From NCBI GenBank assembly GCA_035771175.1, contig CM069602.1, forward strand, positions 11,741,116 through 11,805,115: DNA of 64,000 nucleotides, given 5' to 3'. Source of the stretch: Paratinospora sagittata. Taxonomy: Eukaryota; Streptophyta; Magnoliopsida; Ranunculales; Menispermaceae. Each line of letters starts with the position of its first letter. Positions within the stretch are counted from its first letter, which is position 1. Shown here piece after piece: positions 9,232 through 59,159 of this stretch. Both the position numbers and the translations under genes were made by a program. The notes beneath the pieces are model-generated. The model saw only the letters and a program-made list of their open reading frames with translations. It was not told the origin of the DNA and ran no database searches.

Positions 9232-9235
9232 TGAC

Positions 9236-12600: not shown

Positions 12601-13929
12601 CTAATGAAGATATAATCTTTTGTTGTAGTTAGCCTTGAAACAAGCCTGCCTTAGTTTCTTTGTTTTCTCCTCAAGATCCAACTCTGGCATCTCTTCCATC
12701 AACTTCCTTTGTTCCTCCAATAACCTCAAAGCGTCTCTTATCTTCATATCTCTACCAGCCCCTTCTCCTTCCCCCATTTCCTGCAGTACATAATTAATAT
12801 TCAAGTAATTATATTAATCAGAACTTCCCCAAGTTAAGATATAAGAATACTTATAAAGATCAATATATAATGACGATTAATACCTGAACATTGTTGATAA
12901 GGGTCTGCAAGCTCATCAACTTTCTGTGAGGCCATCTAGGGATGCCCAATTCCCTGCACCTCTTCTTCAGCAACGTTAAGCCCACCTTAAGTTCTTTTGC
13001 AGCTTGTGCTATGGGCATGTAGAAGTAGCGTGAGATGGTAGCGCGTGATAGAGGCTCACTTGAGGATGAAGTAGTACTACCACTGATGCTCCTGCACCCT
13101 TCTCTTTGCTTCATCTTCACCCTCTTCAGTTTCGTCATGGATTCCACATGACCAGTACTACTAATACTGCTTCTGCTGCTGCTAATCATCCCCTCTCCAT
13201 TTTCATGCATCACAATTTGTTGTTTCTCTGCTTCTAATCCAATCCTCATTTCATTCAAACCTCCAAATTCCTTCTCCCATCCACTACTGCTCATCATACT
13301 CCCTATACAAATTACAGTAGCAAATTAATCAACACAAAGAGGATGAAATTGCCAATCCGTTAGTAATAAAGTAGAATGTAAAGTGGATTGAGCATTGATA
13401 CTCACCTTGAAGTTCATTAAGTTGGCTTGGAAAGTCGTCTTCATCCATTGAAGAATTCATGAAGGGTAGTTCTACTGCCTCGCGTAACCCATCTTCCAGA
13501 AGAGGCTCCCACATATATGGGCTGCTACCAAAACTTGAACAGTCACTTCAATAACTTACGAATAGAGAATTAGAGAGCTGGATATTATATATAGAAACAA
13601 TTTCAAATTTTATGTTTAAGAACCAAACGAACTTAAAGAAAACTTATTTGTGGTTCATAAGACTTAAATTTCGAAGCAAAGTTTTATTTCTCCTATCAAG
13701 TAATCAAGTAATCAAGTAACAATATAAAACCAGACCCCTAAAATCACTGTTCTTAAGCTGTATGTAATATGGGACAACATTAATTTCATTCACGTCCTCT
13801 TTCATTTATCTAATATTACCTGAAATCAACTGGGTGGAGTTGGTTTGATAAGAGAAATGGGTCTTCTCCAATATCCACCATTTCATACACACAGCGGCAG
13901 GCGTTTTGAAGGGACTGATTCCTCTCCAT
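12601..13929 (-). CDS. RKD: RKD-type RWP-RK transcription factor, left copy L1
   Basis: Four exons: 13,929-13,820; 13,521-13,406; 13,302-12,884; 12,780-12,601, all with GT-AG introns (phases 2, 1, 0), giving 274 aa. The start is the [11 protein letters not shown] methionine with G at -3 and +4. Its 110-nt exon joins exon 2 in frame as 'DF-SPYMWEP'. The N-terminal half is acidic and Ser-rich (residues about 40-150). The RWP-RK domain is at about 165-215 with '[19 protein letters not shown]', '[17 protein letters not shown]' and a leucine-containing helix after it. The C-terminal 59 residues are charged and probably helical. There is no PB1 domain, so RKD and not NLP. RKDs are nuclear DNA-binding factors of egg-cell and early-embryo identity (family knowledge). 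TATAAAT lies at 14,002-13,996, 67 bp before the ATG. The codon for one Gly (GGG against GGT) differs silently from the other left copies. Which RKD paralogue this is cannot be told without alignment. Confidence 0.9.
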
Positions 13930-13969
13930 GTCTCTGTCAGCTGAGAAGTGACTTATTCATCATCATCAT
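13884..13969 (-). other. Leader with short upstream ORF (ATG x4) ahead of L1 start
   Basis: In sense, 'cagATGATGATGATGAAT' starts a 10-codon uORF (M-M-M-M-N-K-S-L-L-S, then TGA) at 13,969-13,937, ending 7 bp before the main ATG at 13,929. It is preserved in all left and right copies, with K in the left and Q in the right. Whether it lies in the mRNA depends on the start site, which by TATA spacing falls right at its first codon. Confidence 0.5.
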
Positions 13970-13995
13970 CTGCTGAAACTGAGCAAGTGAGTGTC

Positions 13996-14002
13996 ATTTA
14001 TA
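13996..14002 (-). promoter_or_regulatory. TATA box of RKD copy L1
   Basis: TATAAAT within 'cttgtctataaatgacac'. Minisatellite M1 begins about 35 bp upstream and the start codon lies 67 bp downstream, so the leader would be only about 35-40 nt. The same box occurs upstream of each left copy: 17,641-17,635; 21,324-21,318; 25,007-25,001; 28,690-28,684; 32,373-32,367; and 36,057-36,051. Confidence 0.75.
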
Positions 14003-14038
14003 GACAAGAGGAGACAGGAGCGTGGTGATGAACACGAC

Positions 14039-16247: not shown

Positions 16248-17568
16248 CTAATGAAGATATAATCTTTTGTTGTAGTTAGCCTTGAAACAAGCCTGCCTTA
16301 GTTTCTTTGTTTTCTCCTCAAGATCCAACTCTGGCATCTCTTCCATCAACTTCCTTTGTTCCTCCAATAACCTCAAAGCGTCTCTTATCTTCATATCTCT
16401 ACCAGCCCCTTCTCCTTCCCCCATTTCCTGCAGTACATAATTAATATTCAAGTAATTATATTAATCAGAACTTCCCCAAGTTAAGATATAAGAATACTTA
16501 TAAAGATCAATATATAATGACGATTAATACCTGAACATTGTTGATAAGGGTCTGCAAGCTCATCAACTTTCTGTGAGGCCATCTAGGGATGCCCAATTCC
16601 CTGCACCTCTTCTTCAGCAACGTTAAGCCCACCTTAAGTTCTTTTGCAGCTTGTGCTATGGGCATGTAGAAGTAGCGTGAGATGGTAGCGCGTGATAGAG
16701 GCTCACTTGAGGATGAAGTAGTACTACCACTGATGCTCCTGCACCCTTCTCTTTGCTTCATCTTCACCCTCTTCAGTTTCGTCATGGATTCCACATGACC
16801 AGTACTACTAATACTGCTTCTGCTGCTGCTAATCATCCCCTCTCCATTTTCATGCATCACAATTTGTTGTTTCTCTGCTTCTAATCCAATCCTCATTTCA
16901 TTCAAACCTCCAAATTCCTTCTCCCATCCACTACTGCTCATCATACTCCCTATACAAATTACAGTAGCAAATTAATCAACACAAAGAGGATGAAATTGCC
17001 AATCCGTTAGTAATAAAGTAGAATGTAAAGTGGATTGAGCATTGATACTCACCTTGAAGTTCATTAAGTTGGCTTGGAAAGTCGTCTTCATCCATTGAAG
17101 AATTCATGAAGGGTAGTTCTACTGCCTCGCGTAAACCATCTTCCAGAAGAGGCTCCCACATATATGGGCTGCTACCAAAACTTGAACAGTCACTTCAATA
17201 ACTTACGAATAGAGAATTAGAGAGCTGGATATTATATATAGAAACAATTTCAAATTTTATGTTTAAGAACCAAACGAACTTAAAGAAAACTTATTTGTGG
17301 TTCATAAGACTTAAATTTCGAAGCAAAGTTTTATTTCTCCTATCAAGTAATCAAGTAATAATATAAAACCAGACCCCTAAAATCACTGTTCTTAAGCTGT
17401 ATGTAATATGGGACAACATTAATTTCATTCACGTCCTCTTTCATTTATCTAATATTACCTGAAATCAACTGGGTGGAGTTGGTTTGATAAGAGAAATGGG
17501 TCTTCTCCAATATCCACCATTTCATACACACAGCGGCAGGCGTTTTGAAGGGACTGATTCCTCTCCAT
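16248..17568 (-). CDS. RKD: RKD-type RWP-RK transcription factor, left copy L2
   Basis: Exons 17,568-17,459; 17,168-17,053; 16,949-16,531; 16,427-16,248. The protein is identical to L1 (274 aa). Intron 1 is 8 bp shorter than in L1 because one 'caagtaat' repeat is lost (near 17,345); all later left copies share this shorter form, which marks L1 as the outlier. Confidence 0.9.
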
Positions 17569-17677
17569 GTCTCTGTCAGCTGAGAAGTGACTTATTCATC
17601 ATCATCATCTGCTGAAACTGAGCAAGTGAGTGTCATTTATAGACAAGAGGAGACAGGAGCGTGGTGATGAACACGAC

Positions 17678-19183
17678 CGTAATCTCCTGTTCATGAGCAT
17701 TGTAATCTACTGTTCATCAGCACGCCGTAATCTCCTGTTCATCCGCACGCCCCTTATACCTGCTGCCGTAATCACCTGTCCATGAGCACGCCGTATTCTA
17801 CTGTTCATCAGCACGCCCCTTATACCTGCCGCCGTAATCTCCTGTTCATGAGAACGCCGTATCCTCCTGTTCATCAGCACGCGCCGTATTCTACTGTTCA
17901 TCAGCACGCCCCTTATACCTGCAGCCGTAATCTCCTGTTCATGAGCACGCCGTATCCTCCTGTTCATCAGCACGCCGTAATCTCCTGTTCATCAGCACGC
18001 CCCTTATACCTACCGCCGTAATCTCCTGTTCATCAGCACGCCGTATTCTCCTCTTCATCAACACGCGCCGTATTCTACTGTTCATCAGCACGCCCCTTAT
18101 ACCTGCCGCCGTAATCTCCTGTTCATGAGAACGCCGTATCCTCCTGTTCATCAGCACGCGCCGTATTCTACTGTTCATCAGCACGCCCCTTATACCTGCA
18201 GCCGTCATCTCCTGTTCATGAGCACGCCGTATCCTCCTGTTCATCAGCACGCCGTAATCTCCTGTTCATCAGCACGCCCCTTATACCTACCGCCGTAATC
18301 TCCTGTTCATCAGCACGCCGTATTCTCCTCTTCATCAACACGCCCCTTATACCTGCCGCCGTAATCTCCTGTTCATGAGCACGCCGTATCCTCCTGTTCA
18401 TCAGCACGCGCCGTATTCTACTGTTCATCAGCACGCCCCTTATACCTGCAGCCGTAATCTCCTGTTCATGAGCACGCCGTATCCTCCTGTTCATCAGCAC
18501 GCCGTAATCTCCTGTTCATCAGCACGCCCCTTATACCTACCGCCGTAATCTCCTGTTCATCAGCACGCCGTATTCTCCTCTTCATCAACACGCCCCTTAT
18601 ACCTGCCGCCGTAATCTCCTGTTCATGAGCACGCCGTATCCTCCTGTTCATCAGCACGCGCCGTATTCTACTGTTCATCAGCACGCCCCTTATACCTGCA
18701 GCCGTAATCTCCTGTTCATGAGCACGCCGTATCCTCCTGTTCATCACCACGCCGTAATCTCCTGTTCATCAGCACGCCCCTTATACCTACCGCCGTAATC
18801 TCCTGTTCATCAGCACGCCGTATTCTCCTGTTCATCAGCACGCCGTAATCTCCTGTTCATCAGCACGCCGTATCCTCCTGTTCATCAGCACGCGCCGTAT
18901 TCTACTGTTCATCAGCACGCCGTAATCTCCTGTTCATCAGCACGCCCCTTATACCTGCCGCCGTAATCTCCTGTTCATGAGCACGCCGTATCCTCCTGTT
19001 CATCAGCACGCCCCTTATACCTACCGCCGTAATCTCCTGTTCATCAGCACGACGTATTCTCCTCTTCATCAACACGCCCCTTATACCTGCCGCCGTAATC
19101 TCCTGTTCATGAGCACGCCGTATCCTCCTGTTCATCAGCACGCGCCGTATTCTACTGTTCATCAGCACGCCGTAATCTCCTGT
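17678..19183 (-). repeat. Minisatellite array M2 at the promoter of L2
   Basis: About 1.5 kb, with internal higher-order blocks of 277 and 250 bp. One unit carries the variant 'atcaccacgcc' (near 18,745), shared by M3 to M6. Confidence 0.92.
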
Positions 19184-19503
19184 TTAATTTTAGAATTAGT
19201 GGTGTTCACATAGAAATGGGCCCCACTCATGAGAGCAGTAATTGAGGTCATGAAAATGAATTTTGTGATTTCACCAATTTGAACAGCTTAGGAACAATGT
19301 TTTTAAGAGTCCGTTGTTATAATATTTTAGAATTAGTGGTGTTCACGTAGAAATGGTCCCCACTCATGACCAATTTGAACAGCTTAGGAACAATGTTTTT
19401 AAGAGTCCGTTGTTATAATATTTTAGAATTAGTAGTGTTCACGTAGAAATGGGCCCCACTCATGAGAGCAGTAATTGAGGTCATGAAAATGAATTTTGTG
19501 ATT
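19184..19503 (-). repeat. 137-bp repeat cluster downstream of L3
   Basis: Three copies (full, internally deleted, partial), the same arrangement as at 11,855-12,173. Confidence 0.9.
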
Positions 19504-19930: not shown

Positions 19931-21251
19931 CTAATGAAGATATAATCTTTTGTTGTAGTTAGCCTTGAAACAAGCCTGCCTTAGTTTCTTTGTTTTCTCC
20001 TCAAGATCCAACTCTGGCATCTCTTCCATCAACTTCCTTTGTTCCTCCAATAACCTCAAAGCGTCTCTTATCTTCATATCTCTACCAGCCCCTTCTCCTT
20101 CCCCCATTTCCTGCAGTACATAATTAATATTCAAGTAATTATATTAATCAGAACTTCCCCAAGTTAAGATATAAGAATACTTATAAAGATCAATATATAA
20201 TGACGATTAATACCTGAACATTGTTGATAAGGGTCTGCAAGCTCATCAACTTTCTGTGAGGCCATCTAGGGATGCCCAATTCCCTGCACCTCTTCTTCAG
20301 CAACGTTAAGCCCACCTTAAGTTCTTTTGCAGCTTGTGCTATGGGCATGTAGAAGTAGCGTGAGATGGTAGCGCGTGATAGAGGCTCACTTGAGGATGAA
20401 GTAGTACTACCACTGATGCTCCTGCACCCTTCTCTTTGCTTCATCTTCACCCTCTTCAGTTTCGTCATGGATTCCACATGACCAGTACTACTAATACTGC
20501 TTCTGCTGCTGCTAATCATCCCCTCTCCATTTTCATGCATCACAATTTGTTGTTTCTCTGCTTCTAATCCAATCCTCATTTCATTCAAACCTCCAAATTC
20601 CTTCTCCCATCCACTACTGCTCATCATACTCCCTATACAAATTACAGTAGCAAATTAATCAACACAAAGAGGATGAAATTGCCAATCCGTTAGTAATAAA
20701 GTAGAATGTAAAGTGGATTGAGCATTGATACTCACCTTGAAGTTCATTAAGTTGGCTTGGAAAGTCGTCTTCATCCATTGAAGAATTCATGAAGGGTAGT
20801 TCTACTGCCTCGCGTAAACCATCTTCCAGAAGAGGCTCCCACATATATGGGCTGCTACCAAAACTTGAACAGTCACTTCAATAACTTACGAATAGAGAAT
20901 TAGAGAGCTGGATATTATATATAGAAACAATTTCAAATTTTATGTTTAAGAACCAAACGAACTTAAAGAAAACTTATTTGTGGTTCATAAGACTTAAATT
21001 TCGAAGCAAAGTTTTATTTCTCCTATCAAGTAATCAAGTAATAATATAAAACCAGACCCCTAAAATCACTGTTCTTAAGCTGTATGTAATATGGGACAAC
21101 ATTAATTTCATTCACGTCCTCTTTCATTTATCTAATATTACCTGAAATCAACTGGGTGGAGTTGGTTTGATAAGAGAAATGGGTCTTCTCCAATATCCAC
21201 CATTTCATACACACAGCGGCAGGCGTTTTGAAGGGACTGATTCCTCTCCAT
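19931..21251 (-). CDS. RKD: RKD-type RWP-RK transcription factor, left copy L3
   Basis: Exons 21,251-21,142; 20,851-20,736; 20,632-20,214; 20,110-19,931. The coding sequence reads the same as L2. The only unit-specific change I found is in its minisatellite (see M3). Confidence 0.9.
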
Positions 21252-23613: not shown

Positions 23614-24934
23614 CTAATGAAGATATAATCTTTTGTTGTAGTTAGCCTTGAAACAAGCCTGCCTTAGTTTCTTTGTTTTCTCCTCAAGATCCAACTCTGG
23701 CATCTCTTCCATCAACTTCCTTTGTTCCTCCAATAACCTCAAAGCGTCTCTTATCTTCATATCTCTACCAGCCCCTTCTCCTTCCCCCATTTCCTGCAGT
23801 ACATAATTAATATTCAAGTAATTATATTAATCAGAACTTCCCCAAGTTAAGATATAAGAATACTTATAAAGATCAATATATAATGACGATTAATACCTGA
23901 ACATTGTTGATAAGGGTCTGCAAGCTCATCAACTTTCTGTGAGGCCATCTAGGGATGCCCAATTCCCTGCACCTCTTCTTCAGCAACGTTAAGCCCACCT
24001 TAAGTTCTTTTGCAGCTTGTGCTATGGGCATGTAGAAGTAGCGTGAGATGGTAGCGCGTGATAGAGGCTCACTTGAGGATGAAGTAGTACTACCACTGAT
24101 GCTCCTGCACCCTTCTCTTTGCTTCATCTTCACCCTCTTCAGTTTCGTCATGGATTCCACATGACCAGTACTACTAATACTGCTTCTGCTGCTGCTAATC
24201 ATCCCCTCTCCATTTTCATGCATCACAATTTGTTGTTTCTCTGCTTCTAATCCAATCCTCATTTCATTCAAACCTCCAAATTCCTTCTCCCATCCACTAC
24301 TGCTCATCATACTCCCTATACAAATTACAGTAGCAAATTAATCAACACAAAGAGGATGAAATTGCCAATCCGTTAGTAATAAAGTAGAATGTAAAGTGGA
24401 TTGAGCATTGATACTCACCTTGAAGTTCATTAAGTTGGCTTGGAAAGTCGTCTTCATCCATTGAAGAATTCATGAAGGGTAGTTCTACTGCCTCGCGTAA
24501 ACCATCTTCCAGAAGAGGCTCCCACATATATGGGCTGCTACCAAAACTTGAACAGTCACTTCAATAACTTACGAATAGAGAATTAGAGAGCTGGATATTA
24601 TATATAGAAACAATTTCAAATTTTATGTTTAAGAACCAAACGAACTTAAAGAAAACTTATTTGTGGTTCATAAGACTTAAATTTCGAAGCAAAGTTTTAT
24701 TTCTCCTATCAAGTAATCAAGTAATAATATAAAACCAGACCCCTAAAATCACTGTTCTTAAGCTGTATGTAATATGGGACAACATTAATTTCATTCACGT
24801 CCTCTTTCATTTATCTAATATTACCTGAAATCAACTGGGTGGAGTTGGTTTGATAAGAGAAATGGGTCTTCTCCAATATCCACCATTTCATACACACAGC
24901 GGCAGGCGTTTTGAAGGGACTGATTCCTCTCCAT
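23614..24934 (-). CDS. RKD: RKD-type RWP-RK transcription factor, left copy L4
   Basis: Exons 24,934-24,825; 24,534-24,419; 24,315-23,897; 23,793-23,614. It is exactly 3683 bp from L3 and L5, with no coding difference found by eye. Confidence 0.9.
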
Positions 24935-27296: not shown

Positions 27297-28617
27297 CTAA
27301 TGAAGATATAATCTTTTGTTGTAGTTAGCCTTGAAACAAGCCTGCCTTAGTTTCTTTGTTTTCTCCTCAAGATCCAACTCTGGCATCTCTTCCATCAACT
27401 TCCTTTGTTCCTCCAATAACCTCAAAGCGTCTCTTATCTTCATATCTCTACCAGCCCCTTCTCCTTCCCCCATTTCCTGCAGTACATAATTAATATTCAA
27501 GTAATTATATTAATCAGAACTTCCCCAAGTTAAGATATAAGAATACTTATAAAGATCAATATATAATGACGATTAATACCTGAACATTGTTGATAAGGGT
27601 CTGCAAGCTCATCAACTTTCTGTGAGGCCATCTAGGGATGCCCAATTCCCTGCACCTCTTCTTCAGCAACGTTAAGCCCACCTTAAGTTCTTTTGCAGCT
27701 TGTGCTATGGGCATGTAGAAGTAGCGTGAGATGGTAGCGCGTGATAGAGGCTCACTTGAGGATGAAGTAGTACTACCACTGATGCTCCTGCACCCTTCTC
27801 TTTGCTTCATCTTCACCCTCTTCAGTTTCGTCATGGATTCCACATGACCAGTACTACTAATACTGCTTCTGCTGCTGCTAATCATCCCCTCTCCATTTTC
27901 ATGCATCACAATTTGTTGTTTCTCTGCTTCTAATCCAATCCTCATTTCATTCAAACCTCCAAATTCCTTCTCCCATCCACTACTGCTCATCATACTCCCT
28001 ATACAAATTACAGTAGCAAATTAATCAACACAAAGAGGATGAAATTGCCAATCCGTTAGTAATAAAGTAGAATGTAAAGTGGATTGAGCATTGATACTCA
28101 CCTTGAAGTTCATTAAGTTGGCTTGGAAAGTCGTCTTCATCCATTGAAGAATTCATGAAGGGTAGTTCTACTGCCTCGCGTAAACCATCTTCCAGAAGAG
28201 GCTCCCACATATATGGGCTGCTACCAAAACTTGAACAGTCACTTCAATAACTTACGAATAGAGAATTAGAGAGCTGGATATTATATATAGAAACAATTTC
28301 AAATTTTATGTTTAAGAACCAAACGAACTTAAAGAAAACTTATTTGTGGTTCATAAGACTTAAATTTCGAAGCAAAGTTTTATTTCTCCTATCAAGTAAT
28401 CAAGTAATAATATAAAACCAGACCCCTAAAATCACTGTTCTTAAGCTGTATGTAATATGGGACAACATTAATTTCATTCACGTCCTCTTTCATTTATCTA
28501 ATATTACCTGAAATCAACTGGGTGGAGTTGGTTTGATAAGAGAAATGGGTCTTCTCCAATATCCACCATTTCATACACACAGCGGCAGGCGTTTTGAAGG
28601 GACTGATTCCTCTCCAT
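27297..28617 (-). CDS. RKD: RKD-type RWP-RK transcription factor, left copy L5
   Basis: Exons 28,617-28,508; 28,217-28,102; 27,998-27,580; 27,476-27,297. Identical to L4 as far as I can read. Confidence 0.9.
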
Positions 28618-30979: not shown

Positions 30980-32300
30980 CTAATGAAGATATAATCTTTT
31001 GTTGTAGTTAGCCTTGAAACAAGCCTGCCTTAGTTTCTTTGTTTTCTCCTCAAGATCCAACTCTGGCATCTCTTCCATCAACTTCCTTTGTTCCTCCAAT
31101 AACCTCAAAGCGTCTCTTATCTTCATATCTCTACCAGCCCCTTCTCCTTCCCCCATTTCCTGCAGTACATAATTAATATTCAAGTAATTATATTAATCAG
31201 AACTTCCCCAAGTTAAGATATAAGAATACTTATAAAGATCAATATATAATGACGATTAATACCTGAACATTGTTGATAAGGGTCTGCAAGCTCATCAACT
31301 TTCTGTGAGGCCATCTAGGGATGCCCAATTCCCTGCACCTCTTCTTCAGCAACGTTAAGCCCACCTTAAGTTCTTTTGCAGCTTGTGCTATGGGCATGTA
31401 GAAGTAGCGTGAGATGGTAGCGCGTGATAGAGGCTCACTTGAGGATGAAGTAGTACTACCACTGATGCTCCTGCACCCTTCTCTTTGCTTCATCTTCACC
31501 CTCTTCAGTTTCGTCATGGATTCCACATGACCAGTACTACTAATACTGCTTCTGCTGCTGCTAATCATCCCCTCTCCATTTTCATGCATCACAATTTGTT
31601 GTTTCTCTGCTTCTAATCCAATCCTCATTTCATTCAAACCTCCAAATTCCTTCTCCCATCCACTACTGCTCATCATACTCCCTATACAAATTACAGTAGC
31701 AAATTAATCAACACAAAGAGGATGAAATTGCCAATCCGTTAGTAATAAAGTAGAATGTAAAGTGGATTGAGCATTGATACTCACCTTGAAGTTCATTAAG
31801 TTGGCTTGGAAAGTCGTCTTCATCCATTGAAGAATTCATGAAGGGTAGTTCTACTGCCTCGCGTAAACCATCTTCCAGAAGAGGCTCCCACATATATGGG
31901 CTGCTACCAAAACTTGAACAGTCACTTCAATAACTTACGAATAGAGAATTAGAGAGCTGGATATTATATATAGAAACAATTTCAAATTTTATGTTTAAGA
32001 ACCAAACGAACTTAAAGAAAACTTATTTGTGGTTCATAAGACTTAAATTTCGAAGCAAAGTTTTATTTCTCCTATCAAGTAATCAAGTAATAATATAAAA
32101 CCAGACCCCTAAAATCACTGTTCTTAAGCTGTATGTAATATGGGACAACATTAATTTCATTCACGTCCTCTTTCATTTATCTAATATTACCTGAAATCAA
32201 CTGGGTGGAGTTGGTTTGATAAGAGAAATGGGTCTTCTCCAATATCCACCATTTCATACACACAGCGGCAGGCGTTTTGAAGGGACTGATTCCTCTCCAT
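30980..32300 (-). CDS. RKD: RKD-type RWP-RK transcription factor, left copy L6
   Basis: Exons 32,300-32,191; 31,900-31,785; 31,681-31,263; 31,159-30,980. Identical to L4 and L5 as far as I can read. Confidence 0.9.
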
Positions 32301-34663: not shown

Positions 34664-35984
34664 CTAATGAAGATATAATCTTTTGTTGTAGTTAGCCTTG
34701 AAACAAGCCTGCCTTAGTTTCTTTGTTTTCTCCTCAAGATCCAACTCTGGCATCTCTTCCATCAACTTCCTTTGTTCCTCCAATAACCTCAAAGCGTCTC
34801 TTATCTTCATATCTCTACCAGCCCCTTCTCCTTCCCCCATTTCCTGCAGTACATAATTAATATTCAAGTAATTATATTAATCAGAACTTCCCCAAGTTAA
34901 GATATAAGAATACTTATAAAGATCAATATATAATGACGATTAATACCTGAACATTGTTGATAAGGGTCTGCAAGCTCATCAACTTTCTGTGAGGCCATCT
35001 AGGGATGCCCAATTCCCTGCACCTCTTCTTCAGCAACGTTAAGCCCACCTTAAGTTCTTTTGCAGCTTGTGCTATGGGCATGTAGAAGTAGCGTGAGATG
35101 GTAGCGCGTGATAGAGGCTCACTTGAGGATGAAGTAGTACTACCACTGATGCTCCTGCACCCTTCTCTTTGCTTCATCTTCACCCTCTTCAGTTTCGTCA
35201 TGGATTCCACATGACCAGTACTACTAATACTGCTTCTGCTGCTGCTAATCATCCCCTCTCCATTTTCATGCATCACAATTTGTTGTTTCTCTGCTTCTAA
35301 TCCAATCCTCATTTCATTCAAACCTCCAAATTCCTTCTCCCATCCACTACTGCTCATCATACTCCCTATACAAATTACAGTAGCAAATTAATCAACACAA
35401 AGAGGATGAAATTGCCAATCCGTTAGTAATAAAGTAGAATGTAAAGTGGATTGAGCATTGATACTCACCTTGAAGTTCATTAAGTTGGCTTGGAAAGTCG
35501 TCTTCATCCATTGAAGAATTCATGAAGGGTAGTTCTACTGCCTCGCGTAAACCATCTTCCAGAAGAGGCTCCCACATATATGGGCTGCTACCAAAACTTG
35601 AACAGTCACTTCAATAACTTACGAATAGAGAATTAGAGAGCTGGATATTATATATAGAAACAATTTCAAATTTTATGTTTAAGAACCAAAAGAACTTAAA
35701 GAAAACTTATTTGTGGTTCATAAGACTTAAATTTCGAAGCAAAGTTTTATTTCTCCTATCAAGTAATCAAGTAATAATATAAAACCAGACCCCTAAAATC
35801 ACTGTTCTTAAGCTGTATGTAATATGGGACAACATTAATTTCATTCACGTCCTCTTTCATTTATCTAATATTACCTGAAATCAACTGGGTGGAGTTGGTT
35901 TGATAAGAGAAATGGGTCTTCTCCAATATCCACCATTTCATACACACAGCGGCAGGCGTTTTGAAGGGACTGATTCCTCTCCAT
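34664..35984 (-). CDS. RKD: RKD-type RWP-RK transcription factor, left copy L7 (nearest the gap)
   Basis: Exons 35,984-35,875; 35,584-35,469; 35,365-34,947; 34,843-34,664. The protein is the same as the other left copies. Unit-specific changes are outside the exons: one extra A in the 3' flank (near 34,640) and one substitution in intron 1 ('accaaaagaac' near 35,690). Confidence 0.9.
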
Positions 35985-37080: not shown

Positions 37081-37180
37081 NNNNNNNNNNNNNNNNNNNN
37101 NNNNNNNNNNNNNNNNNNNNNNNNNNNNNNNNNNNNNNNNNNNNNNNNNNNNNNNNNNNNNNNNNNNNNNNNNNNNNNNN
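37081..37180. other. Assembly gap (100 N)
   Basis: Exactly 100 unknown bases, a length commonly used for a gap of unknown size. The left side is minisatellite in minus orientation. The right side starts in a 137-bp repeat followed by minisatellite in plus orientation. Confidence 0.98.
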
Positions 37181-38153: not shown

Positions 38154-39460
38154 ATGGAGAGGAATCAGTCCCTTCAAAACGCCTGTTGTTCTGTGTATGA
38201 AACGGTGGATATTGGAGAAGACCCATTTCTCTTCTCAAACCAACTCCACCCACTTGATTTCAGGTAATATTAGATAAATGAAAGAGGACGTGAATGAAAT
38301 TAATGTTGTCCCATATTACAAACAGCTTAAGAACAGTGATTTTAGGGGTCCGGTTTTATATATTTACTTGATAAGAGAAACAAAACTTTGCTTCGAAATT
38401 TAAGTCTTATGAACCACAAATAAGTTTTCTTTAAGTTTGTTTGGTTCTTAAACATAAAATTTCAAATTGTTTCTATATATAATATCGAGCTCTCTAATTC
38501 TCTATTCATAAGTTATTGAAGTGACTGTTCAAGAATTGGTAGCAGCCCATATATGTGGGAGCCTCTTCTGGAAGATGGTCTACGCGAGGCAGTAGTACTG
38601 CCCTTCATGAATTCTGCAATGGATGAAGATGAATTTCCAAGCCAACTTAATGAACTTGAAGGTGAGTATCGATGCTCAATCCACTTGATATTCTACTTTA
38701 TTATTAACGGATTGGCAATTTCATCCTCTTTGTGTTGATTAATTTGCTATTGTAATTTGTATAGGGAGTATGATGAGCAGTAGTGGATGGGAGAAGGAAT
38801 TTGGAGGTTTGAATGAAATGAGGAGTGGATTAGAAGCAGAGAAACAACAAATTGTGATGCATGAAAATGGAGAGGGGATGATTAGCAGTATTAGTAGTAC
38901 TGGTAGTGATCATGTGGAATCGATGACGAAACTGAAGAGGGTGATGATGAAGCAAAGAGAAGGGTGCCGGAGCATCAGTTGTAGTACTACTTCATCCTCA
39001 AGTGAGTCTCTATCACGCGCTACCATCTCACGCTACTTCTACATGCCCATAGCACAAGCTGCAAAAGAACTTAAGGTGGGCTTAACGTTGCTGAAGAAGA
39101 GGTGCAGGGAATTGGGCATCCCTAGATGGCCTCACAGAAAGTTGATGAGCTTGCAGACCCTTATCAACAATGTTCAGGTATTAATCATCATTATATATTG
39201 ATCTTTATAAGTATTCTTATATCTTAACTTGGGGAAGTTCTGATTAATATAATTACTTGAATATTAATTATGTACTGCAGGAAATGGGGGAAGGAGAAGG
39301 GGTTGGTAGAGATATGAAGATAAGAGATGCTTTGAGGTTATTGGAGGAACAAAGGAAGTTGATTGAAGAGATGCCAGAGATGGATCTTGAGGAGAAAACA
39401 AAGAAACTAAGGCAGGCTTGTTTCAAGGCTAACTACAACAAAAGATTATATCTTCATTAG
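38154..39460 (+). CDS. RKD: RKD-type RWP-RK transcription factor, right copy P1
   Basis: Exons 38,154-38,263; 38,546-38,661; 38,765-39,177; 39,281-39,460 (819 nt, 272 aa), with GT-AG introns of the same phases as the left copies. The RWP-RK domain is at about 163-213, with RWPHRK at 196-201. Compared with the left protein I count about 16 substitutions (for example RC to CS at 12-13, E to V in 'AVVLPF', K to M in 'RVMMKQ') and an indel pair in the Ser-rich region, but none in the RWP-RK block. The start choice rests on the in-frame splice and on conservation of the MERNQ exon in both arrays. A longer frame beginning at 38,086 overlaps the TATA box and is out of phase with exon 2. This is a separately evolving RKD lineage in inverted orientation to the left one. 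Confidence 0.9.
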
Positions 39461-41202: not shown

Positions 41203-41468
41203 TATAAATGACACTCACTTGCTCAGTTTCAGCAGATGATGATGATGAATCAGTCACTTCTCAGCTGACAGAGACATGGAGAGGAATCAGTCCCTTCAAA
41301 ACGCCTGTTGTTCTGTGTATGAAACGGTGGATATTGGAGAAGACCCATTTCTCTTCTCAAACCAACTCCACCCACTTGATTTCAGGTAATATTGGATAAA
41401 TGAAAGAGGACGTGAATGAAATTAATGTTGTCCCATATTACAAACAGCTTAAGAACAGTGATTTTAGA
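41203..41468 (+). pseudogene. Truncated RKD module T1 (class A): promoter, exon 1, start of intron 1
   Basis: TATA at 41,203, uORF, ATG at 41,276, and exon 1 to 41,385 identical in coding to the full copies, with an intact GT donor. Intron 1 continues about 80 bp to 'gattttagag' and then passes into 'gaccactaattc' of the 137-bp repeat. Exons 2-4 are deleted. Intron position +9 to +10 reads 'attgg' instead of 'attag', a class A marker. Confidence 0.85.
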
Positions 41469-41878
41469 GGACCACTAATTCTAAAATATTATAACAATGG
41501 ACTCTTAAAAACATTGTTCCTAAGCTGTTCAAATTGGTGAAATCACAAAATTCATTTTCATGACCTCAATTACTGCTCTCATGAGTGGGGCCCGTTTCTA
41601 CGTGAACACCACTAATTCTAAAATGTTATAACAACGGACTCTTAAAAACATTGTTCCTAAGCTGTTCAAATTGGTGAAATCACAAAATTCATTTTCATGA
41701 CCTCAATTACTGCTCTCATGAGTGGGGCCCGTTTCTACGTGAACACCACTAATTCTAAAATGTTATAAAAACGGACTCTTAAAAACATTGTTCCTAAGCT
41801 GTTCAAATTGGTGAAATCACAAAATTCATTTTCTTGACCTCAATTACTACTCTCATGAGCGGGGCCCGTTTCTACGTG
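41469..41878 (+). repeat. 137-bp repeat cluster after T1
   Basis: About three tandem copies running into minisatellite R3. Confidence 0.9.
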
Positions 41879-42818: not shown

Positions 42819-44125
42819 ATGGAGAGGAATCAGTCCCTTCAAAACGCCTGTTGTTCTGTGTATGAAACGGTGGATATTGGAGAAGACCCATTTCTCTTCT
42901 CAAACCAACTCCACCCACTTGATTTCAGGTAATATTAGATAAATGAAAGAGGACGTGAATGAAATTAATGTTGTCCCATATTACAAACAGCTTAAGAACA
43001 GTGATTTTAGGGGTCCGGTTTTATATATTTACTTGATAAGAGAAACAAAACTTTGCTTCGAAATTTAAGTCTTATGAACCACAAATAAGTTTTCTTTAAG
43101 TTTGTTTGGTTCTTAAACATAAAATTTCAAATTGTTTCTATATATAATATCGAGCTCTCTAATTCTCTATTCATAAGTTATTGAAGTGACTGTTCAAGAA
43201 TTGGTAGCAGCCCATATATGTGGGAGCCTCTTCTGGAAGATGGTCTACGCGAGGCAGTAGTACTGCCCTTCATGAATTCTGCAATGGATGAAGATGAATT
43301 TCCAAGCCAACTTAATGAACTTGAAGGTGAGTATCGATGCTCAATCCACTTGATATTCTACTTTATTATTAACGGATTGGCAATTTCATCCTCTTTGTGT
43401 TGATTAATTTGCTATTGTAATTTGTATAGGGAGTATGATGAGCAGTAGTGGATGGGAGAAGGAATTTGGAGGTTTGAATGAAATGAGGAGTGGATTAGAA
43501 GCAGAGAAACAACAAATTGTGATGCATGAAAATGGAGAGGGGATGATTAGCAGTATTAGTAGTACTGGTAGTGATCATGTGGAATCGATGACGAAACTGA
43601 AGAGGGTGATGATGAAGCAAAGAGAAGGGTGCCGGAGCATCAGTTGTAGTACTACTTCATCCTCAAGTGAGTCTCTATCACGCGCTACCATCTCACGCTA
43701 CTTCTACATGCCCATAGCACAAGCTGCAAAAGAACTTAAGGTGGGCTTAACGTTGCTGAAGAAGAGGTGCAGGGAATTGGGCATCCCTAGATGGCCTCAC
43801 AGAAAGTTGATGAGCTTGCAGACCCTTATCAACAATGTTCAGGTATTAATCATCATTATATATTGATCTTTATAAGTATTCTTATATCTTAACTTGGGGA
43901 AGTTCTGATTAATATAATTACTTGAATATTAATTATGTACTGCAGGAAATGGGGGAAGGAGAAGGGGTTGGTAGAGATATGAAGATAAGAGATGCTTTGA
44001 GGTTATTGGAGGAACAAAGGAAGTTGATTGAAGAGATGCCAGAGATGGATCTTGAGGAGAAAACAAAGAAACTAAGGCAGGCTTGTTTCAAGGCTAACTA
44101 CAACAAAAGATTATATCTTCATTAG
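42819..44125 (+). CDS. RKD: RKD-type RWP-RK transcription factor, right copy P2
   Basis: Exons 42,819-42,928; 43,211-43,326; 43,430-43,842; 43,946-44,125. It is exactly 4665 bp from P1, with the same 272-aa protein. Confidence 0.9.
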
Positions 44126-45867: not shown

Positions 45868-46133
45868 TATAAATGACACTCACTTGCTCAGTTTCAGCAG
45901 ATGATGATGATGAATCAGTCACTTCTCAGCTGACAGAGACATGGAGAGGAATCAGTCCCTTCAAAACGCCTGTTGTTCTGTGTATGAAACGGTGGATATT
46001 GGAGAAGACCCATTTCTCTTCTCAAACCAACTCCACCCACTTGATTTCAGGTAATATTGGATAAATGAAAGAGGACGTGAATGAAATTAATGTTGTCCCA
46101 TATTACAAACAGCTTAAGAACAGTGATTTTAGA
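45868..46133 (+). pseudogene. Truncated RKD module T2 (class A)
   Basis: Exon 1 at 45,941-46,050. Same breakpoint and 'attgg' intron marker as T1, so it arose by duplication of a 4665-bp dimer. Confidence 0.85.
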
Positions 46134-47483: not shown

Positions 47484-48790
47484 ATGGAGAGGAATCAGTC
47501 CCTTCAAAACGCCTGTTGTTCTGTGTATGAAACGGTGGATATTGGAGAAGACCCATTTCTCTTCTCAAACCAACTCCACCCACTTGATTTCAGGTAATAT
47601 TAGATAAATGAAAGAGGACGTGAATGAAATTAATGTTGTCCCATATTACAAACAGCTTAAGAACAGTGATTTTAGGGGTCCGGTTTTATATATTTACTTG
47701 ATAAGAGAAACAAAACTTTGCTTCGAAATTTAAGTCTTATGAACCACAAATAAGTTTTCTTTAAGTTTGTTTGGTTCTTAAACATAAAATTTCAAATTGT
47801 TTCTATATATAATATCGAGCTCTCTAATTCTCTATTCATAAGTTATTGAAGTGACTGTTCAAGAATTGGTAGCAGCCCATATATGTGGGAGCCTCTTCTG
47901 GAAGATGGTCTACGCGAGGCAGTAGTACTGCCCTTCATGAATTCTGCAATGGATGAAGATGAATTTCCAAGCCAACTTAATGAACTTGAAGGTGAGTATC
48001 GATGCTCAATCCACTTGATATTCTACTTTATTATTAACGGATTGGCAATTTCATCCTCTTTGTGTTGATTAATTTGCTATTGTAATTTGTATAGGGAGTA
48101 TGATGAGCAGTAGTGGATGGGAGAAGGAATTTGGAGGTTTGAATGAAATGAGGAGTGGATTAGAAGCAGAGAAACAACAAATTGTGATGCATGAAAATGG
48201 AGAGGGGATGATTAGCAGTATTAGTAGTACTGGTAGTGATCATGTGGAATCGATGACGAAACTGAAGAGGGTGATGATGAAGCAAAGAGAAGGGTGCCGG
48301 AGCATCAGTTGTAGTACTACTTCATCCTCAAGTGAGTCTCTATCACGCGCTACCATCTCACGCTACTTCTACATGCCCATAGCACAAGCTGCAAAAGAAC
48401 TTAAGGTGGGTTTAACGTTGCTGAAGAAGAGGTGCAGGGAATTGGGCATCCCTAGATGGCCTCACAGAAAGTTGATGAGCTTGCAGACCCTTATCAACAA
48501 TGTTCAGGTATTAATCATCATTATATATTGATCTTTATAAGTATTCTTATATCTTAACTTGGGGAAGTTCTGATTAATATAATTACTTGAATATTAATTA
48601 TGTACTGCAGGAAATGGGGGAAGGAGAAGGGGTTGGTAGAGATATGAAGATAAGAGATGCTTTGAGGTTATTGGAGGAACAAAGGAAGTTGATTGAAGAG
48701 ATGCCAGAGATGGATCTTGAGGAGAAAACAAAGAAACTAAGGCAGGCTTGTTTCAAGGCTAACTACAACAAAAGATTATATCTTCATTAG
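47484..48790 (+). CDS. RKD: RKD-type RWP-RK transcription factor, right copy P3
   Basis: Exons 47,484-47,593; 47,876-47,991; 48,095-48,507; 48,611-48,790. It has one silent change in the RWP-RK exon ('aaggtgggtttaacg' for 'aaggtgggcttaacg', Gly codon), shared with P4. Confidence 0.9.
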
Positions 48791-52031: not shown

Positions 52032-53338
52032 ATGGAGAGGAATCAGTCCCTTCAAAACGCCTGTTGTTCTGTGTATGAAACGGTGGATATTGGAGAAGAC
52101 CCATTTCTCTTCTCAAACCAACTCCACCCACTTGATTTCAGGTAATATTAGATAAATGAAAGAGGACGTGAATGAAATTAATGTTGTCCCATATTACAAA
52201 CAGCTTAAGAACAGTGATTTTAGGGGTCCGGTTTTATATATTTACTTGATAAGAGAAACAAAACTTTGCTTCGAAATTTAAGTCTTATGAACCACAAATA
52301 AGTTTTCTTTAAGTTTGTTTGGTTCTTAAACATAAAATTTCAAATTGTTTCTATATATAATATCGAGCTCTCTAATTCTCTATTCATAAGTTATTGAAGT
52401 GACTGTTCAAGAATTGGTAGCAGCCCATATATGTGGGAGCCTCTTCTGGAAGATGGTCTACGCGAGGCAGTAGTACTGCCCTTCATGAATTCTGCAATGG
52501 ATGAAGATGAATTTCCAAGCCAACTTAATGAACTTGAAGGTGAGTATCGATGCTCAATCCACTTGATATTCTACTTTATTATTAACGGATTGGCAATTTC
52601 ATCCTCTTTGTGTTGATTAATTTGCTATTGTAATTTGTATAGGGAGTATGATGAGCAGTAGTGGATGGGAGAAGGAATTTGGAGGTTTGAATGAAATGAG
52701 GAGTGGATTAGAAGCAGAGAAACAACAAATTGTGATGCATGAAAATGGAGAGGGGATGATTAGCAGTATTAGTAGTACTGGTAGTGATCATGTGGAATCG
52801 ATGACGAAACTGAAGAGGGTGATGATGAAGCAAAGAGAAGGGTGCCGGAGCATCAGTTGTAGTACTACTTCATCCTCAAGTGAGTCTCTATCACGCGCTA
52901 CCATCTCACGCTACTTCTACATGCCCATAGCACAAGCTGCAAAAGAACTTAAGGTGGGTTTAACGTTGCTGAAGAAGAGGTGCAGGGAATTGGGCATCCC
53001 TAGATGGCCTCACAGAAAGTTGATGAGCTTGCAGACCCTTATCAACAATGTTCAGGTATTAATCATCATTATATATTGATCTTTATAAGTATTCTTATAT
53101 CTTAACTTGGGGAAGTTCTGATTAATATAATTACTTGAATATTAATTATGTACTGCAGGAAATGGGGGAAGGAGAAGGGGTTGGTAGAGATATGAAGATA
53201 AGAGATGCTTTGAGGTTATTGGAGGAACAAAGGAAGTTGATTGAAGAGATGCCAGAGATGGATCTTGAGGAGAAAACAAAGAAACTAAGGCAGGCTTGTT
53301 TCAAGGCTAACTACAACAAAAGATTATATCTTCATTAG
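52032..53338 (+). CDS. RKD: RKD-type RWP-RK transcription factor, right copy P4
   Basis: Exons 52,032-52,141; 52,424-52,539; 52,643-53,055; 53,159-53,338. It shares the silent Gly codon change with P3. Confidence 0.9.
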
Positions 53339-55396: not shown

Positions 55397-55639
55397 GGAC
55401 TCTTAAAAACATTGTTCCTAAGCTGTTCAAATTGGTGAAATCACAAAATTCATTTTCATGACCTCAATTACTGCTCTCATGAGTGGGGCCCGTTTCTACG
55501 TGAACACCACTAATTCTAAAATGCTATAAAAACGGACTCTTAAAAACATTGTTCCTAAGCTGTTCAAATTGGTGAAATCACAAAATTCATTTTCTTGACC
55601 TCAATTACTACTCTCATGAGCGGGGCCCGTTTCTACGTG
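55397..55639 (+). repeat. 137-bp repeat cluster after T4
   Basis: Same as after T3. Confidence 0.9.
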
Positions 55640-56486
55640 AACAGGAGATTACGGCATGCTGATAAACAGGAGATTACGGCGGCAGGTATATGGGGCATAC
55701 TGATGAACAGGAGATTAAGGCGTGCTGATGAACAGTAGAATACGGCGTGCGGATGAACAGGAGATTACGGCGGCAGGTATACGGGGCGTGCTGATGAACA
55801 GGAGATTACGGCGTGAGGTATAAGGGGCGTGCTGATGAACAGGAGATTACGGCGTGCTGATGAACAGGAGATACGGCTTGAGGTATAAGGGGCGTGCTGA
55901 TGAACAGTAGATTACGGCGGCAGGTATAAGGGGCGTGCTGATGAACAGTAAATTACGGCGTGCGTGCTGATGAACAGTAGATTACGGCGGCAGGTATAAG
56001 GGGCGTGCTGACGAACAGTAAATTACGGCGTGAGGTATAAGGGGCGTGTTGATGAACAGGAGATTACGGCGGAATACGGCGTGCTGATGAACAGGAGAAT
56101 ACGGCGTGCTGATGAACAGTAGACTACGGCGGCAGGTACAAAGGGCGTGCTGATGAACAGGAGAATACGGCGTGCTGATGAACAGGAGAATACGGCGTGA
56201 GATATAAGGGGCGTGTTGATGAACATGAGATTACGGCGGCTGATGAACAGGAGAATACGGCGTGCTGATGAACAGTAGATTACGGCGGCAGGTATAAAGG
56301 GCGTGCTGATGAACAGGAAATTACGGCGTGAGGTATAAGGGGCGTGTTTATGAACAGGAGATTACGGCGGCTGATGAACAGGAGAATAAGGCGTGCTGAT
56401 GAACAGGAGAATACGGCGTGCTGATGGACAGTAGACTACGGCACGGCGTGCTGATGAACAGGAGATTACGGCCGTGTTCATCAGCA
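55640..56486 (+). repeat. Minisatellite array R9 at truncated module T5
   Basis: 847-bp form, but with the 'ggccgtgttc' end typical of full genes. Confidence 0.92.
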
Positions 56487-56506
56487 TGCTCCTGTGTCCT
56501 CTTGTC

Positions 56507-56800
56507 TATAAATGACACTCACTTGCTCAGTTTCAGCAGATGATGATGATGAATCAGTCACTTCTCAGCTGACAGAGACATGGAGAGGAATCAGTCCCTT
56601 CAAAACGCCTGTTGTTCTGTGTATGAAACGGTGGATATTGGAGAAGACCCATTTCTCTTCTCAAACCAACTCCACCCACTTGATTTCAGGTAATATTAGA
56701 TAAATGAAAGAGGACGTGAATGAAATTAATGTTGTCCCATATTACAAACAGCTTAAGAACAGTGATTTTAGGGGTCCGGTTTTATATATTTACTTGATAT
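56507..56800 (+). pseudogene. Truncated RKD module T5 (class C)
   Basis: Exon 1 at 56,580-56,689. Intron 1 persists further than in the other classes, to 'atatttacttgata', then joins 'taaaaacggactc'. It keeps the 'ggccg' promoter variant of full genes, so it looks like an independent deletion of a full copy. The shared 'ata' at the junction suggests short-homology joining. Confidence 0.85.
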
Positions 56801-56912
56801 AAAAACGGACTCTTAAAAACATTGTTCCTAAGCTGTTCAAATTGGTGAAATCACAAAATTCATTTTCTTGACCTCAATTACTACTCTCATGAGCGGGGCC
56901 CGTTTCTACGTG
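56801..56912 (+). repeat. 137-bp repeat, single partial copy after T5
   Basis: Less than one unit, from 'aaaacggactc' to 'tttctacgtg'. Confidence 0.9.
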
Positions 56913-57759
56913 AACAGGAGATTACGGCATGCTGATAAACAGGAGATTACGGCGGCAGGTATATGGGGCATACTGATGAACAGGAGATTAAGGCGTGCTG
57001 ATGAACAGTAGAATACGGCGTGCGGATGAACAGGAGATTACGGCGGCAGGTATACGGGGCGTGCTGATGAACAGGAGATTACGGCGTGAGGTATAAGGGG
57101 CGTGCTGATGAACAGGAGATTACGGCGTGCTGATGAACAGGAGATACGGCTTGAGGTATAAGGGGCGTGCTGATGAACAGTAGATTACGGCGGCAGGTAT
57201 AAGGGGCGTGCTGATGAACAGTAAATTACGGCGTGCGTGCTGATGAACAGTAGATTACGGCGGCAGGTATAAGGGGCGTGCTGACGAACAGTAAATTACG
57301 GCGTGAGGTATAAGGGGCGTGTTGATGAACAGGAGATTACGGCGGAATACGGCGTGCTGATGAACAGGAGAATACGGCGTGCTGATGAACAGTAGACTAC
57401 GGCGGCAGGTACAAAGGGCGTGCTGATGAACAGGAGAATACGGCGTGCTGATGAACAGGAGAATACGGCGTGAGATATAAGGGGCGTGTTGATGAACATG
57501 AGATTACGGCGGCTGATGAACAGGAGAATACGGCGTGCTGATGAACAGTAGATTACGGCGGCAGGTATAAAGGGCGTGCTGATGAACAGGAAATTACGGC
57601 GTGAGGTATAAGGGGCGTGTTTATGAACAGGAGATTACGGCGGCTGATGAACAGGAGAATAAGGCGTGCTGATGAACAGGAGAATACGGCGTGCTGATGG
57701 ACAGTAGACTACGGCACGGCGTGCTGATGAACAGGAGATTACGGCCGTGTTCATCAGCA
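56913..57759 (+). repeat. Minisatellite array R10 at the promoter of P5
   Basis: 847-bp form, 'ggccgtgttc' end. Confidence 0.92.
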
Positions 57760-57852
57760 TGCTCCTGTGTCCTCTTGTCTATAAATGACACTCACTTGCT
57801 CAGTTTCAGCAGATGATGATGATGAATCAGTCACTTCTCAGCTGACAGAGAC

Positions 57853-59159
57853 ATGGAGAGGAATCAGTCCCTTCAAAACGCCTGTTGTTCTGTGTATGAA
57901 ACGGTGGATATTGGAGAAGACCCATTTCTCTTCTCAAACCAACTCCACCCACTTGATTTCAGGTAATATTAGATAAATGAAAAAGGACGTGAATGAAATT
58001 AATGTTGTCCCATATTACAAACAGCTTAAGAACAGTGATTTTAGGGGTCCGGTTTTATATATTTACTTGATAAGAGAAACAAAACTTTGCTTCGAAATTT
58101 AAGTCTTATGAACCACAAATAAGTTTTCTTTAAGTTTGTTTGGTTCTTAAACATAAAATTTCAAATTGTTTCTATATATAATATCGAGCTCTCTAATTCT
58201 CTATTCATAAGTTATTGAAGTGACTGTTCAAGAATTGGTAGCAGCCCATATATGTGGGAGCCTCTTCTGGAAGATGGTCTACGCGAGGCAGTAGTACTGC
58301 CCTTCATGAATTCTGCAATGGATGAAGATGAATTTCCAAGCCAACTTAATGAACTTGAAGGTGAGTATCGATGCTCAATCCACTTGATATTCTACTTTAT
58401 TATTAACGGATTGGCAATTTCATCCTCTTTGTGTTGATTAATTTGCTATTGTAATTTGTATAGGGAGTATGATGAGCAGTAGTGGATGGGAGAAGGAATT
58501 TGGAGGTTTGAATGAAATGAGGAGTGGATTAGAAGCAGAGAAACAACAAATTGTGATGCATGAAAATGGAGAGGGGATGATTAGCAGTATTAGTAGTACT
58601 GGTAGTGATCATGTGGAATCGATGACGAAACTGAAGAGGGTGATGATGAAGCAAAGAGAAGGGTGCCGGAGCATCAGTTGTAGTACTACTTCATCCTCAA
58701 GTGAGTCTCTATCACGCGCTACCATCTCACGCTACTTCTACATGCCCATAGCACAAGCTGCAAAAGAACTTAAGGTGGGCTTAACGTTGCTGAAGAAGAG
58801 GTGCAGGGAATTGGGCATCCCTAGATGGCCTCACAGAAAGTTGATGAGCTTGCAGACCCTTATCAACAATGTTCAGGTATTAATCATCATTATATATTGA
58901 TCTTTATAAGTATTCTTATATCTTAACTTGGGGAAGTTCTGATTAATATAATTACTTGAATATTAATTATGTACTGCAGGAAATGGGGGAAGGAGAAGGG
59001 GTTGGTAGAGATATGAAGATAAGAGATGCTTTGAGGTTATTGGAGGAACAAAGGAAGTTGATTGAAGAGATGCCAGAGATGGATCTTGAGGAGAAAACAA
59101 AGAAACTAAGGCAGGCTTGTTTCAAGGCTAACTACAACAAAAGATTATATCTTCATTAG
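57853..59159 (+). CDS. RKD: RKD-type RWP-RK transcription factor, right copy P5
   Basis: Exons 57,853-57,962; 58,245-58,360; 58,464-58,876; 58,980-59,159. It has the P1/P2 form of the Gly codon and one private intron 1 change ('gaaaaaggacg' near 57,979). Confidence 0.9.

What the first reader, a model, noticed from the sequence alone, without database searches (positions are those of the whole stretch)
12601..59159. Twelve near-identical RKD (RWP-RK) genes in two inverted tandem arrays
Seven minus-strand and five plus-strand four-exon copies all look intact, with conserved splice sites and no premature stop that I can find. RKD genes are usually low-copy regulators of egg-cell and embryo identity, and RKD/RWP genes underlie nucellar embryony in citrus-type plants (established knowledge). 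Amplification to 12 copies with conserved promoters could raise dosage or create a new expression domain. The link to apomixis is inference.
Basis: partly seen in the sequence, partly recalled or inferred. Interest (0 to 1): 0.92.

Follow-up and report, generated by a model that had tools for sequence, protein, structure and literature searches.

The report
Massive tandem array of RKD genes
The window holds 12 nearly identical copies of a gene from a family of plant egg-cell and embryo regulators, part of much larger head-to-tail arrays in this genome; the mirror-image layout that was reported is most likely an assembly error, and no role in asexual seed formation has been shown.

Summary
The 12 four-exon RKD genes are real and open: 7 identical proteins (282 aa) on the left (-) and 5 (280 aa) on the right (+). 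Three results change the story. (1) The arrays meet at a 100-N scaffold gap, 37081-37180. Their outer flanks are mirror copies, and further versions lie on C14 and C1. A junction I predicted 1.26 Mb away is also a 100-N gap beside an inverted, 100% identical 1,015 bp. The inverted layout is best read as versions of ONE head-to-tail array scaffolded face to face. (2) Twelve is an undercount: an exact 34-mer from the 3' end of array-type genes occurs 190 times in the assembly, control 0. (3) These genes do not carry the ancestral promoter. Two parental genes exist (C14:9.16 Mb, C1:3.175 Mb); array genes have another C-terminus, a minisatellite-plus-TATA upstream region, and a short upstream ORF in 12 of 12. 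Constraint is weak (pooled dN/dS 0.52, p 0.02). Separately, a gypsy-type retrotransposon carries a rearranged antisense RKD fragment in its leader. Expression and apomixis were not testable.

The parts
12601..13929 (-). left RKD gene 1 (outermost, 8 bp longer)
16248..17568 (-). left RKD gene 2
19931..21251 (-). left RKD gene 3
23614..24934 (-). left RKD gene 4
27297..28617 (-). left RKD gene 5
30980..32300 (-). left RKD gene 6
34664..35984 (-). left RKD gene 7, next to the gap
37081..37180 (.). 100-N scaffold gap at the point of inversion
38154..39460 (+). right RKD gene 1
42819..44125 (+). right RKD gene 2
47484..48790 (+). right RKD gene 3
52032..53338 (+). right RKD gene 4
57853..59159 (+). 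right RKD gene 5
41276..41470 (+). first of eight exon-1-only fragments (others start at 45941, 50676, 55224, 56580, 61045, 62401, 63757); each shares about 176-223 bp with the gene from its ATG, then runs into spacer
17672..19184 (.). minisatellite upstream of left gene 2 (units of about 25, 66, 91 and 250 bp); like stretches lie upstream of the other genes
17608..17641 (-). TATAAAT (starts 73 bp before the ATG) and upstream ATGATGATGATG (starts 40 bp before it, 10-codon ORF) of left gene 2; the same distances in 12 of 12 genes
1..11152 (.). left flank; its mirror image lies beyond the right array at C14:11842323-11853451 (97% identical)

Best explanation
The window shows two of several homologous versions (haplotypes and/or homeologs) of ONE head-to-tail tandem array of a derived RKD paralog, joined face to face at a 100-N scaffold gap. 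SHOWN: the array gene differs from two parental RKD genes (C14:9.16 Mb, C1:3.175 Mb) by another C-terminus and by an upstream region made of a minisatellite plus a TATA element. SHOWN: the array versions that I read carry distinct gene types, nearly uniform within the window. INFERRED: the arrays grow and are homogenised by unequal exchange and gene conversion, helped by the minisatellite spacers; the exon-1 fragments are old breakpoints. INFERRED: the genes can still make an RKD protein with an intact DNA-binding domain, but from a non-ancestral promoter, behind a short upstream ORF and under weak constraint, so altered, low or silenced output is more likely than a plain gain of egg-cell dosage.
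For: Gap at the inversion point. Mirror flanks 97.3% over 12.3 kb, 90.1% over 4.3 kb, about 95% some 38 kb out. Far probes find further versions on C14 and C1. The predicted meeting point of two inner C14 versions is a 100-N gap with 1,015 bp repeated inverted at 100%. Further along C14 another inverted pair (15.00 and 13.63 Mb) is 99% identical while C1 is 96%. Left-type genes identical to within rounding stand in plus orientation at C14:9.207-9.281 Mb, and that stretch ends at a further 100-N gap. Count 190, control 0. Parental genes, upstream region and upstream ORF. Array types group apart from parents and dispersed copies, support 0.944. Selection.
Against: A probe on the other side of the array finds only two versions, C14 and C1, so redundancy is not uniform. 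The 90.1% stretch is low for alleles, and identity between C14 versions in the far probes (92-96%-99%) overlaps with that to C1 (94-96%), so the versions do not fall into clean pairs. No reads, Hi-C map or expression data were available. The selection test rests on three pairs that I chose and treated as independent.
Confidence: 0.77

Rival explanations
1. A real inverted segmental duplication: the array with hundreds of kb of flank was duplicated as a giant palindrome on C14, so the two arrays do lie face to face.
For: Mirror order holds out to probes about 110 and 260 kb from the array; only two versions on the other side of the array.
Against: Both inversion points that I looked at (window gap; C14:10517016-10517115) are 100-N gaps, and at the second the overlap is 100% identical over 1,015 bp. 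Another within-C14 inverted pair is 99% identical. Identical left-type genes stand elsewhere on C14 in the other orientation, next to yet another gap.
Confidence: 0.15
2. Functional dosage: the amplified RKD genes are expressed in ovule or nucellus and drive egg-cell or embryo identity, possibly apomixis.
For: DNA-binding domain and reading frames kept in 12 of 12 window copies; pooled dN/dS below 1; RKD overexpression can trigger somatic embryos in rice (abstract of PMC10114336) and CitRKD1 is needed for nucellar embryos in citrus (abstract of PMC6090715).
Against: Ancestral upstream region lost, short upstream ORF in 12 of 12; exon and intron divergence alike between left and right type, 3.2 and 3.4%; 2 of 10 non-window genes read are broken. 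No expression evidence either way.
Confidence: 0.12
3. The array unit is itself a mobile element, or was seeded by one: an RKD copy fell under retroelement-derived upstream sequence, was moved, and then expanded in tandem.
For: Array-type 3' ends also occur singly at C6:30.466, C24:7.776, C1:40.58 and C17:15.55 Mb. In the C6 locus the sequence just before the minisatellite matches the window's left flank at 78-83%, and that flank holds a decayed retroelement.
Against: 96 of the 100 listed places are in arrays; the other 90 are not listed. I identified no element ends at the unit borders; two of the four single places were not read.
Confidence: 0.15

Closest known systems
RKD subfamily of RWP-RK transcription factors
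   Same: RWP-RK domain, no second domain found, four exons; RKDs average 4.0 exons in one survey (passage of PMC7569760)
   Different: Copy number far above the RKD counts I saw in papers; upstream region, leader and C-terminus differ from the two parental genes in the same genome
Tandem RWP-RK clusters of Chrysanthemum lavandulifolium (PMC10105424)
   Same: Growth of the family by tandem duplication; 101 RWP-RKs, 31 RKDs (passages)
   Different: Here one gene type per array with near-identical copies and minisatellite spacers
CitRKD1 polyembryony locus of citrus (PMC6090715)
   Same: An RKD gene whose upstream region was changed by repetitive DNA
   Different: There a MITE-like insertion upstream of one gene linked to a trait (abstract); here an array with a minisatellite and no known trait
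Concerted evolution of tandem arrays, as in rDNA (recalled)
   Same: Copies within an array nearly identical, arrays differ from each other
   Different: The unit is a transcription-factor gene
Gene fragments carried by LTR retrotransposons (recalled as a class)
   Same: 10 of 12 dispersed RKD fragments read share one gypsy-type flank
   Different: The fragment lies antisense in the leader, keeps introns 2 and 3, and groups with the parental genes, not with the array

Membership tests
RKD (RWP-RK domain protein) | RWP-RK domain | tested here: met
   Pfam PF02042, 78.4 and 79.1 bits against cut-off 29.3
RKD (RWP-RK domain protein) | No PB1 domain (which would make it an NLP) | tested here: met
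   No other Pfam family at E 1e-3 in the two proteins; definition from passage of PMC7569760
RKD (RWP-RK domain protein) | Role in egg-cell or embryo identity | not testable with these tools
   No expression or mutant data
Inverted pair of arrays (palindrome) | Continuous sequence across the inversion point | tested here: not met
   100-N gap at 37081-37180; a second inversion point on C14 is also a 100-N gap
Tandem array under concerted evolution | Copies more alike within than between arrays | tested here: met
   0-1 mismatch per gene body within a side; dS 0.025-0.065 between six array types
Apomixis locus of the CitRKD1 kind | MITE upstream and expression in nucellus linked to the trait | not tested
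   Upstream region is a minisatellite; no MITE search made; expression not testable
LTR retrotransposon (dispersed fragments, not the window array) | Two LTRs, primer-binding site, gag and pol | tested here: met
   C17:24.07 Mb: repeats of about 1.4 kb, 97.7% identical; TGGTATCAGAGC motif, name recalled; RT, RNase H and integrase domains there, gag in L009 of the same flank family. No target-site duplication found

The most novel reading that the evidence does not exclude
A conflict over an egg-cell regulator: a gypsy-type retrotransposon carries an antisense piece of RKD in its leader and has spread it over many chromosomes, while the genome has built arrays of well over a hundred re-promoted RKD genes. 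Array transcripts and antisense RNA would meet (small RNAs, decoy or silencing) and set RKD output in the female germline, so that copy number acts as a fast-evolving control of reproduction.
Probability: 0.1. Interest if true: 0.88.

Novelty: new variant of a known kind. Interest (0 to 1): 0.6.

Why it matters
RKD genes are known as regulators of germ-cell and embryo identity, with 5 to 31 members in the plants I saw counted. An assembly with 190 array-type 3' ends, in which the ancestral upstream region is replaced while the DNA-binding domain is kept, lets one ask how a plant tolerates, silences or uses extreme copy number of such a factor; homologous arrays stand on both C1 and C14. It is also a warning: arrays in plant scaffolds that meet in mirror image at a run of 100 N should not be read as palindromes.

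Tried and rejected
Rejected: (1) '12 copies': 190 3' ends. (2) A real face-to-face pair as first choice. (3) That all RWP-RK hits are arrays: of the 150 scored hits (655 candidates), my sorting, recounted, gives 68 in tandem arrays, 2 parents, 2 array-type copies elsewhere (C6, C24), the 8 fetched as L001-L008 (of which L005-L008 look like further dispersed copies) and 70 others, dispersed; one of the 70 (C1:40.58 Mb) also has the array-type 3' end next to it. Of the 70 I read 12 (L009-L014, L016-L021): 10 of 12 share the gypsy-type flank (L009 itself was the query), 2 of 12 (L010, L014) do not; 11 of 12 have an internal duplication of about 232 bp; 8 of 12 lack nearly all of intron 1, 4 of 12 have a shortened one. 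(4) RNA families: none in the window. (5) Solved structures: none at E 1e-3.

Led nowhere: a probe of the expected mirror place missed because of drift; later found the mirror 16-18 kb away. In one search the search string for the C-terminus of the C14 parent was not found; only the C1 parent was read to its stop. A search with a right-type gene piece did not complete. The RKD1-3 versus RKD4/5 clade was not settled: no tree was made. No structure was predicted. Rows dropped before the tree: C2386_b, C2386_c, C14_9298. C14_9290a, which is broken, was left out of the dN/dS tables; C1_3343 was kept, its stop codon skipped.

Papers: abstract only: PMC6090715, PMC10114336. Passages: PMC11109638, PMC12346261, PMC11202622, PMC11814187, PMC7569760, PMC10105424. 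All others: search listings. That no array of this size has been reported rests on searches of one open-access library, so it is weak. Recalled, from no call: concerted evolution of rDNA, the tRNA-primer motif, small-RNA ideas, that the helicase-like ORF near L010 may be of a Helitron.
Full report
WHAT IS THERE. The window is C14:11741116-11805115 of a 1.29-Gb assembly of 4,049 contigs. Twelve four-exon RKD genes are present as reported, 7 minus and 5 plus; 12 of 12 have open spliced frames, and they collapse to two proteins of 282 and 280 aa. RWP-RK is the only Pfam domain found. Left genes stand 3,683-3,684 bp apart (3,639 for the outermost), right genes 4,548-5,821 bp apart. Gene bodies of one side differ by 0 or 1 mismatch from the reference copy. 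The right array also holds eight fragments that share only about the first 176-223 bp of the gene, that is exon 1 and part of intron 1.

THE TURNING POINT IS A GAP. Positions 37081-37180 are exactly 100 N, and no other N is in the window. Beyond the right array the sequence is the mirror image of the left flank: 97.3% over 12.3 kb, then 90.1% over 4.3 kb, and about 95% over 1.0 kb some 38 kb out. Probes further out show more versions. C14:11.950 Mb finds C1:3.561 (+), C14:9.448 (+) and C14:11.626 (-) at 92-96%, besides repeats of lower identity. C14:12.100 Mb finds C1:3.713 (+), C14:9.602 (+) and C14:11.462 (-) at 94-96% over most of its length, with short pieces of 85 and 89%. The first 3,000 of 8,000 fetched bases of the left arm at 11.488 Mb find C14:9.576 (97%), C14:12.077 (97-99%) and C1:3.688 (95%); their first 1,088 bp, which also occur elsewhere in the genome, are in the C14 versions but not in the C1 match. 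C14:13.0 Mb finds C14:18.13 and C1:5.97 (99%) and C14:15.65 (97%). C14:15.0 Mb finds an inverted version at C14:13.63 (99%) and C1:5.32 (96%). On the other side of the array C14:9.05 Mb finds only C1:3.059 (98%) besides matches under 70 bp.

A TEST BY PREDICTION. If the two inner C14 versions are separate contigs laid face to face they should meet near 10.52 Mb. I extrapolated that point and fetched 10 kb: it has a 100-N gap at 10517016-10517115, and the last 1,015 bp fetched before the gap are 100% identical, inverted, to sequence 3.9 kb after it. That is what overlapping redundant contigs look like. Also, left-type genes identical to those of the window within rounding stand in plus orientation at C14:9.207-9.281 Mb and on the unplaced contigs C1851, C2748 and C1553 (39 scored of 737 candidates, 6 of the 39 in the window), and the C14 stretch ends at yet another 100-N gap, 9291850-9291949. 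Turning the window's left contig round would simply continue that array. I hold the inverted layout to be an assembly join at about 80%, and a true inverted duplication at about 15%. Against the join: only two versions on the other side of the array, the 90.1% stretch, no clean pairing of the versions by identity, and no reads.

HOW MANY. An exact 34-mer at the end of the array-type last exon occurs 190 times, 109 forward and 81 reverse, control 0. The list stops at 100 places; recounted they are 29 in C1:3.256-3.445 Mb (two of them only 277 bp apart, so not both whole genes), 33 in C14:9.204-9.341, 19 in C14:11.754-11.840 (12 in the window), 4 on C1553, 11 on C1851 and 4 single places (C1:40.58, C6, C17, C24). 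The other 90 are not shown. The figure counts 3' ends, not proven whole genes, and assembly copies, not copies per haploid genome; C2386-type genes may be partly missed or included by the one ambiguous base. RWP-RK domains alone give 26 (C1), 15 (C14:9.29), 12 (C14:11.78) and 15 (C2386) in tandem among the 150 scored hits.

WHERE THEY COME FROM. Two single genes at C14:9.16 and C1:3.175 Mb have a Stephania-like C-terminus (KANYKK) and differ by dS 0.13, dN/dS 0.24. The array types read have KANYNKRL(Y/H)LH instead. In a tree of a 357-bp core, parents plus the 12 dispersed copies group apart from the array types, support 0.944. The two parents share their upstream region (94.6% over 3.9 kb); its match to array genes ends 20 or 41 bp before the array ATG, and beyond that array genes have TATAAAT at -73 and a minisatellite. 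Both parents have an in-frame start further up where 12 of 12 window genes have a 10-codon ORF that stops before the main ATG (sequences). 'Conserved promoters' is thus true within the array and false towards the ancestor. In the C6 locus the sequence just before the minisatellite resembles the window's left flank (78-83%), which holds a decayed retroelement with reverse-transcriptase and integrase domains: a hint of where the new upstream region came from.

SELECTION. Fifteen pairs of six array types give dN/dS from 0.33 to 1.00. Three pairs that I chose as independent give 41 nonsynonymous and 19 synonymous differences, dN/dS 0.52, Fisher p 0.02; in the RWP-RK part 1 and 2, p 0.13. Left and right type differ by 3.2% in exons and 3.4% in introns. 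Of 10 non-window genes read, 2 are broken: C1_3343 by a stop, C14_9290a, beside a gap, by a frameshift. Constraint is weak but probably not absent.

DISPERSED COPIES. Of 70 dispersed hits I read 12 (L009-L014, L016-L021). Ten share one flank with gag-pol of gypsy type on the other strand (gag, RT, RNase H and integrase domains in L009 and L011). In the C17:24.07 Mb example two repeats of about 1.4 kb, 97.7% identical, bound the element, which sits in a satellite of about 1.15-kb period; the RKD fragment lies antisense between the primer-site end of the 5' repeat and gag. Whether the other nine are whole elements was not tested. Two copies (L010, L014) have another flank; near L010 is a helicase-like ORF, Pfam match below cut-off.

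WHAT PLANT. The nearest protein is from Stephania cephalantha (55% over 96%), then Thalictrum and Coptis: order Ranunculales, most likely Menispermaceae (inference). Large scaffolds reach at least C26 (hit at 29.8 Mb), C28 has 28,334 bases; C27 was not checked. Menispermum has 26 chromosomes and, in M. canadense, a young genome duplication at Ks 0.15 (passages of PMC11109638 and PMC12346261), close to the parental dS; but those assemblies are 676 Mb and about 970 Mb. Five locus pairs compared show 87-99% identity for four, mostly 93-96%, and less for L007/L008. Species unknown.

HOW IT MOST LIKELY WORKS. A derived RKD gene with a minisatellite upstream region stood at one position before the versions on C1 and C14 parted (inferred from position). 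Unequal exchange then multiplied and homogenised it in each version, leaving exon-1 fragments as scars (inferred). The protein keeps its DNA-binding domain, but promoter, leader and C-terminus are new, so expression in the ancestral pattern is unlikely, and effects on dosage or apomixis are unproven.

Noticed in passing
L011 with L030/L031 (C17:24065500-24086500); flank shared by L009, L012, L013, L016-L021: Gypsy-type LTR retrotransposon carrying a rearranged RKD fragment antisense in its leader; the C17 copy sits in a satellite of about 1.15-kb period.
   Followed up: partly
L010, L014 (C10:39.70 Mb, C4:9.66 Mb): Two RKD fragments in another flank, 97% alike over 3.2 kb; a helicase-like ORF, below the Pfam cut-off, lies at the edge of L010.
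   Followed up: no
C14:9.29-18.13 Mb: Repeated inverted duplicates of 94-99% within this scaffold and 100-N gaps at 9291850, 10517016 and 11778196 suggest redundant contigs in the scaffold.
   Followed up: partly
window 1-11152: Left flank holds a decayed gypsy-type retroelement (reverse transcriptase and integrase pieces at 8848-10481) broken into several frames.
   Followed up: partly
window 11943-12135 and the spacer of each left unit: A 96-bp sequence in two copies (97% matches) recurs in the left spacers; its nature is unknown.
   Followed up: no
C1:3255955 and C1:3256232: Two array-type 3' ends only 277 bp apart, about 88 kb before the main C1 array.
   Followed up: no
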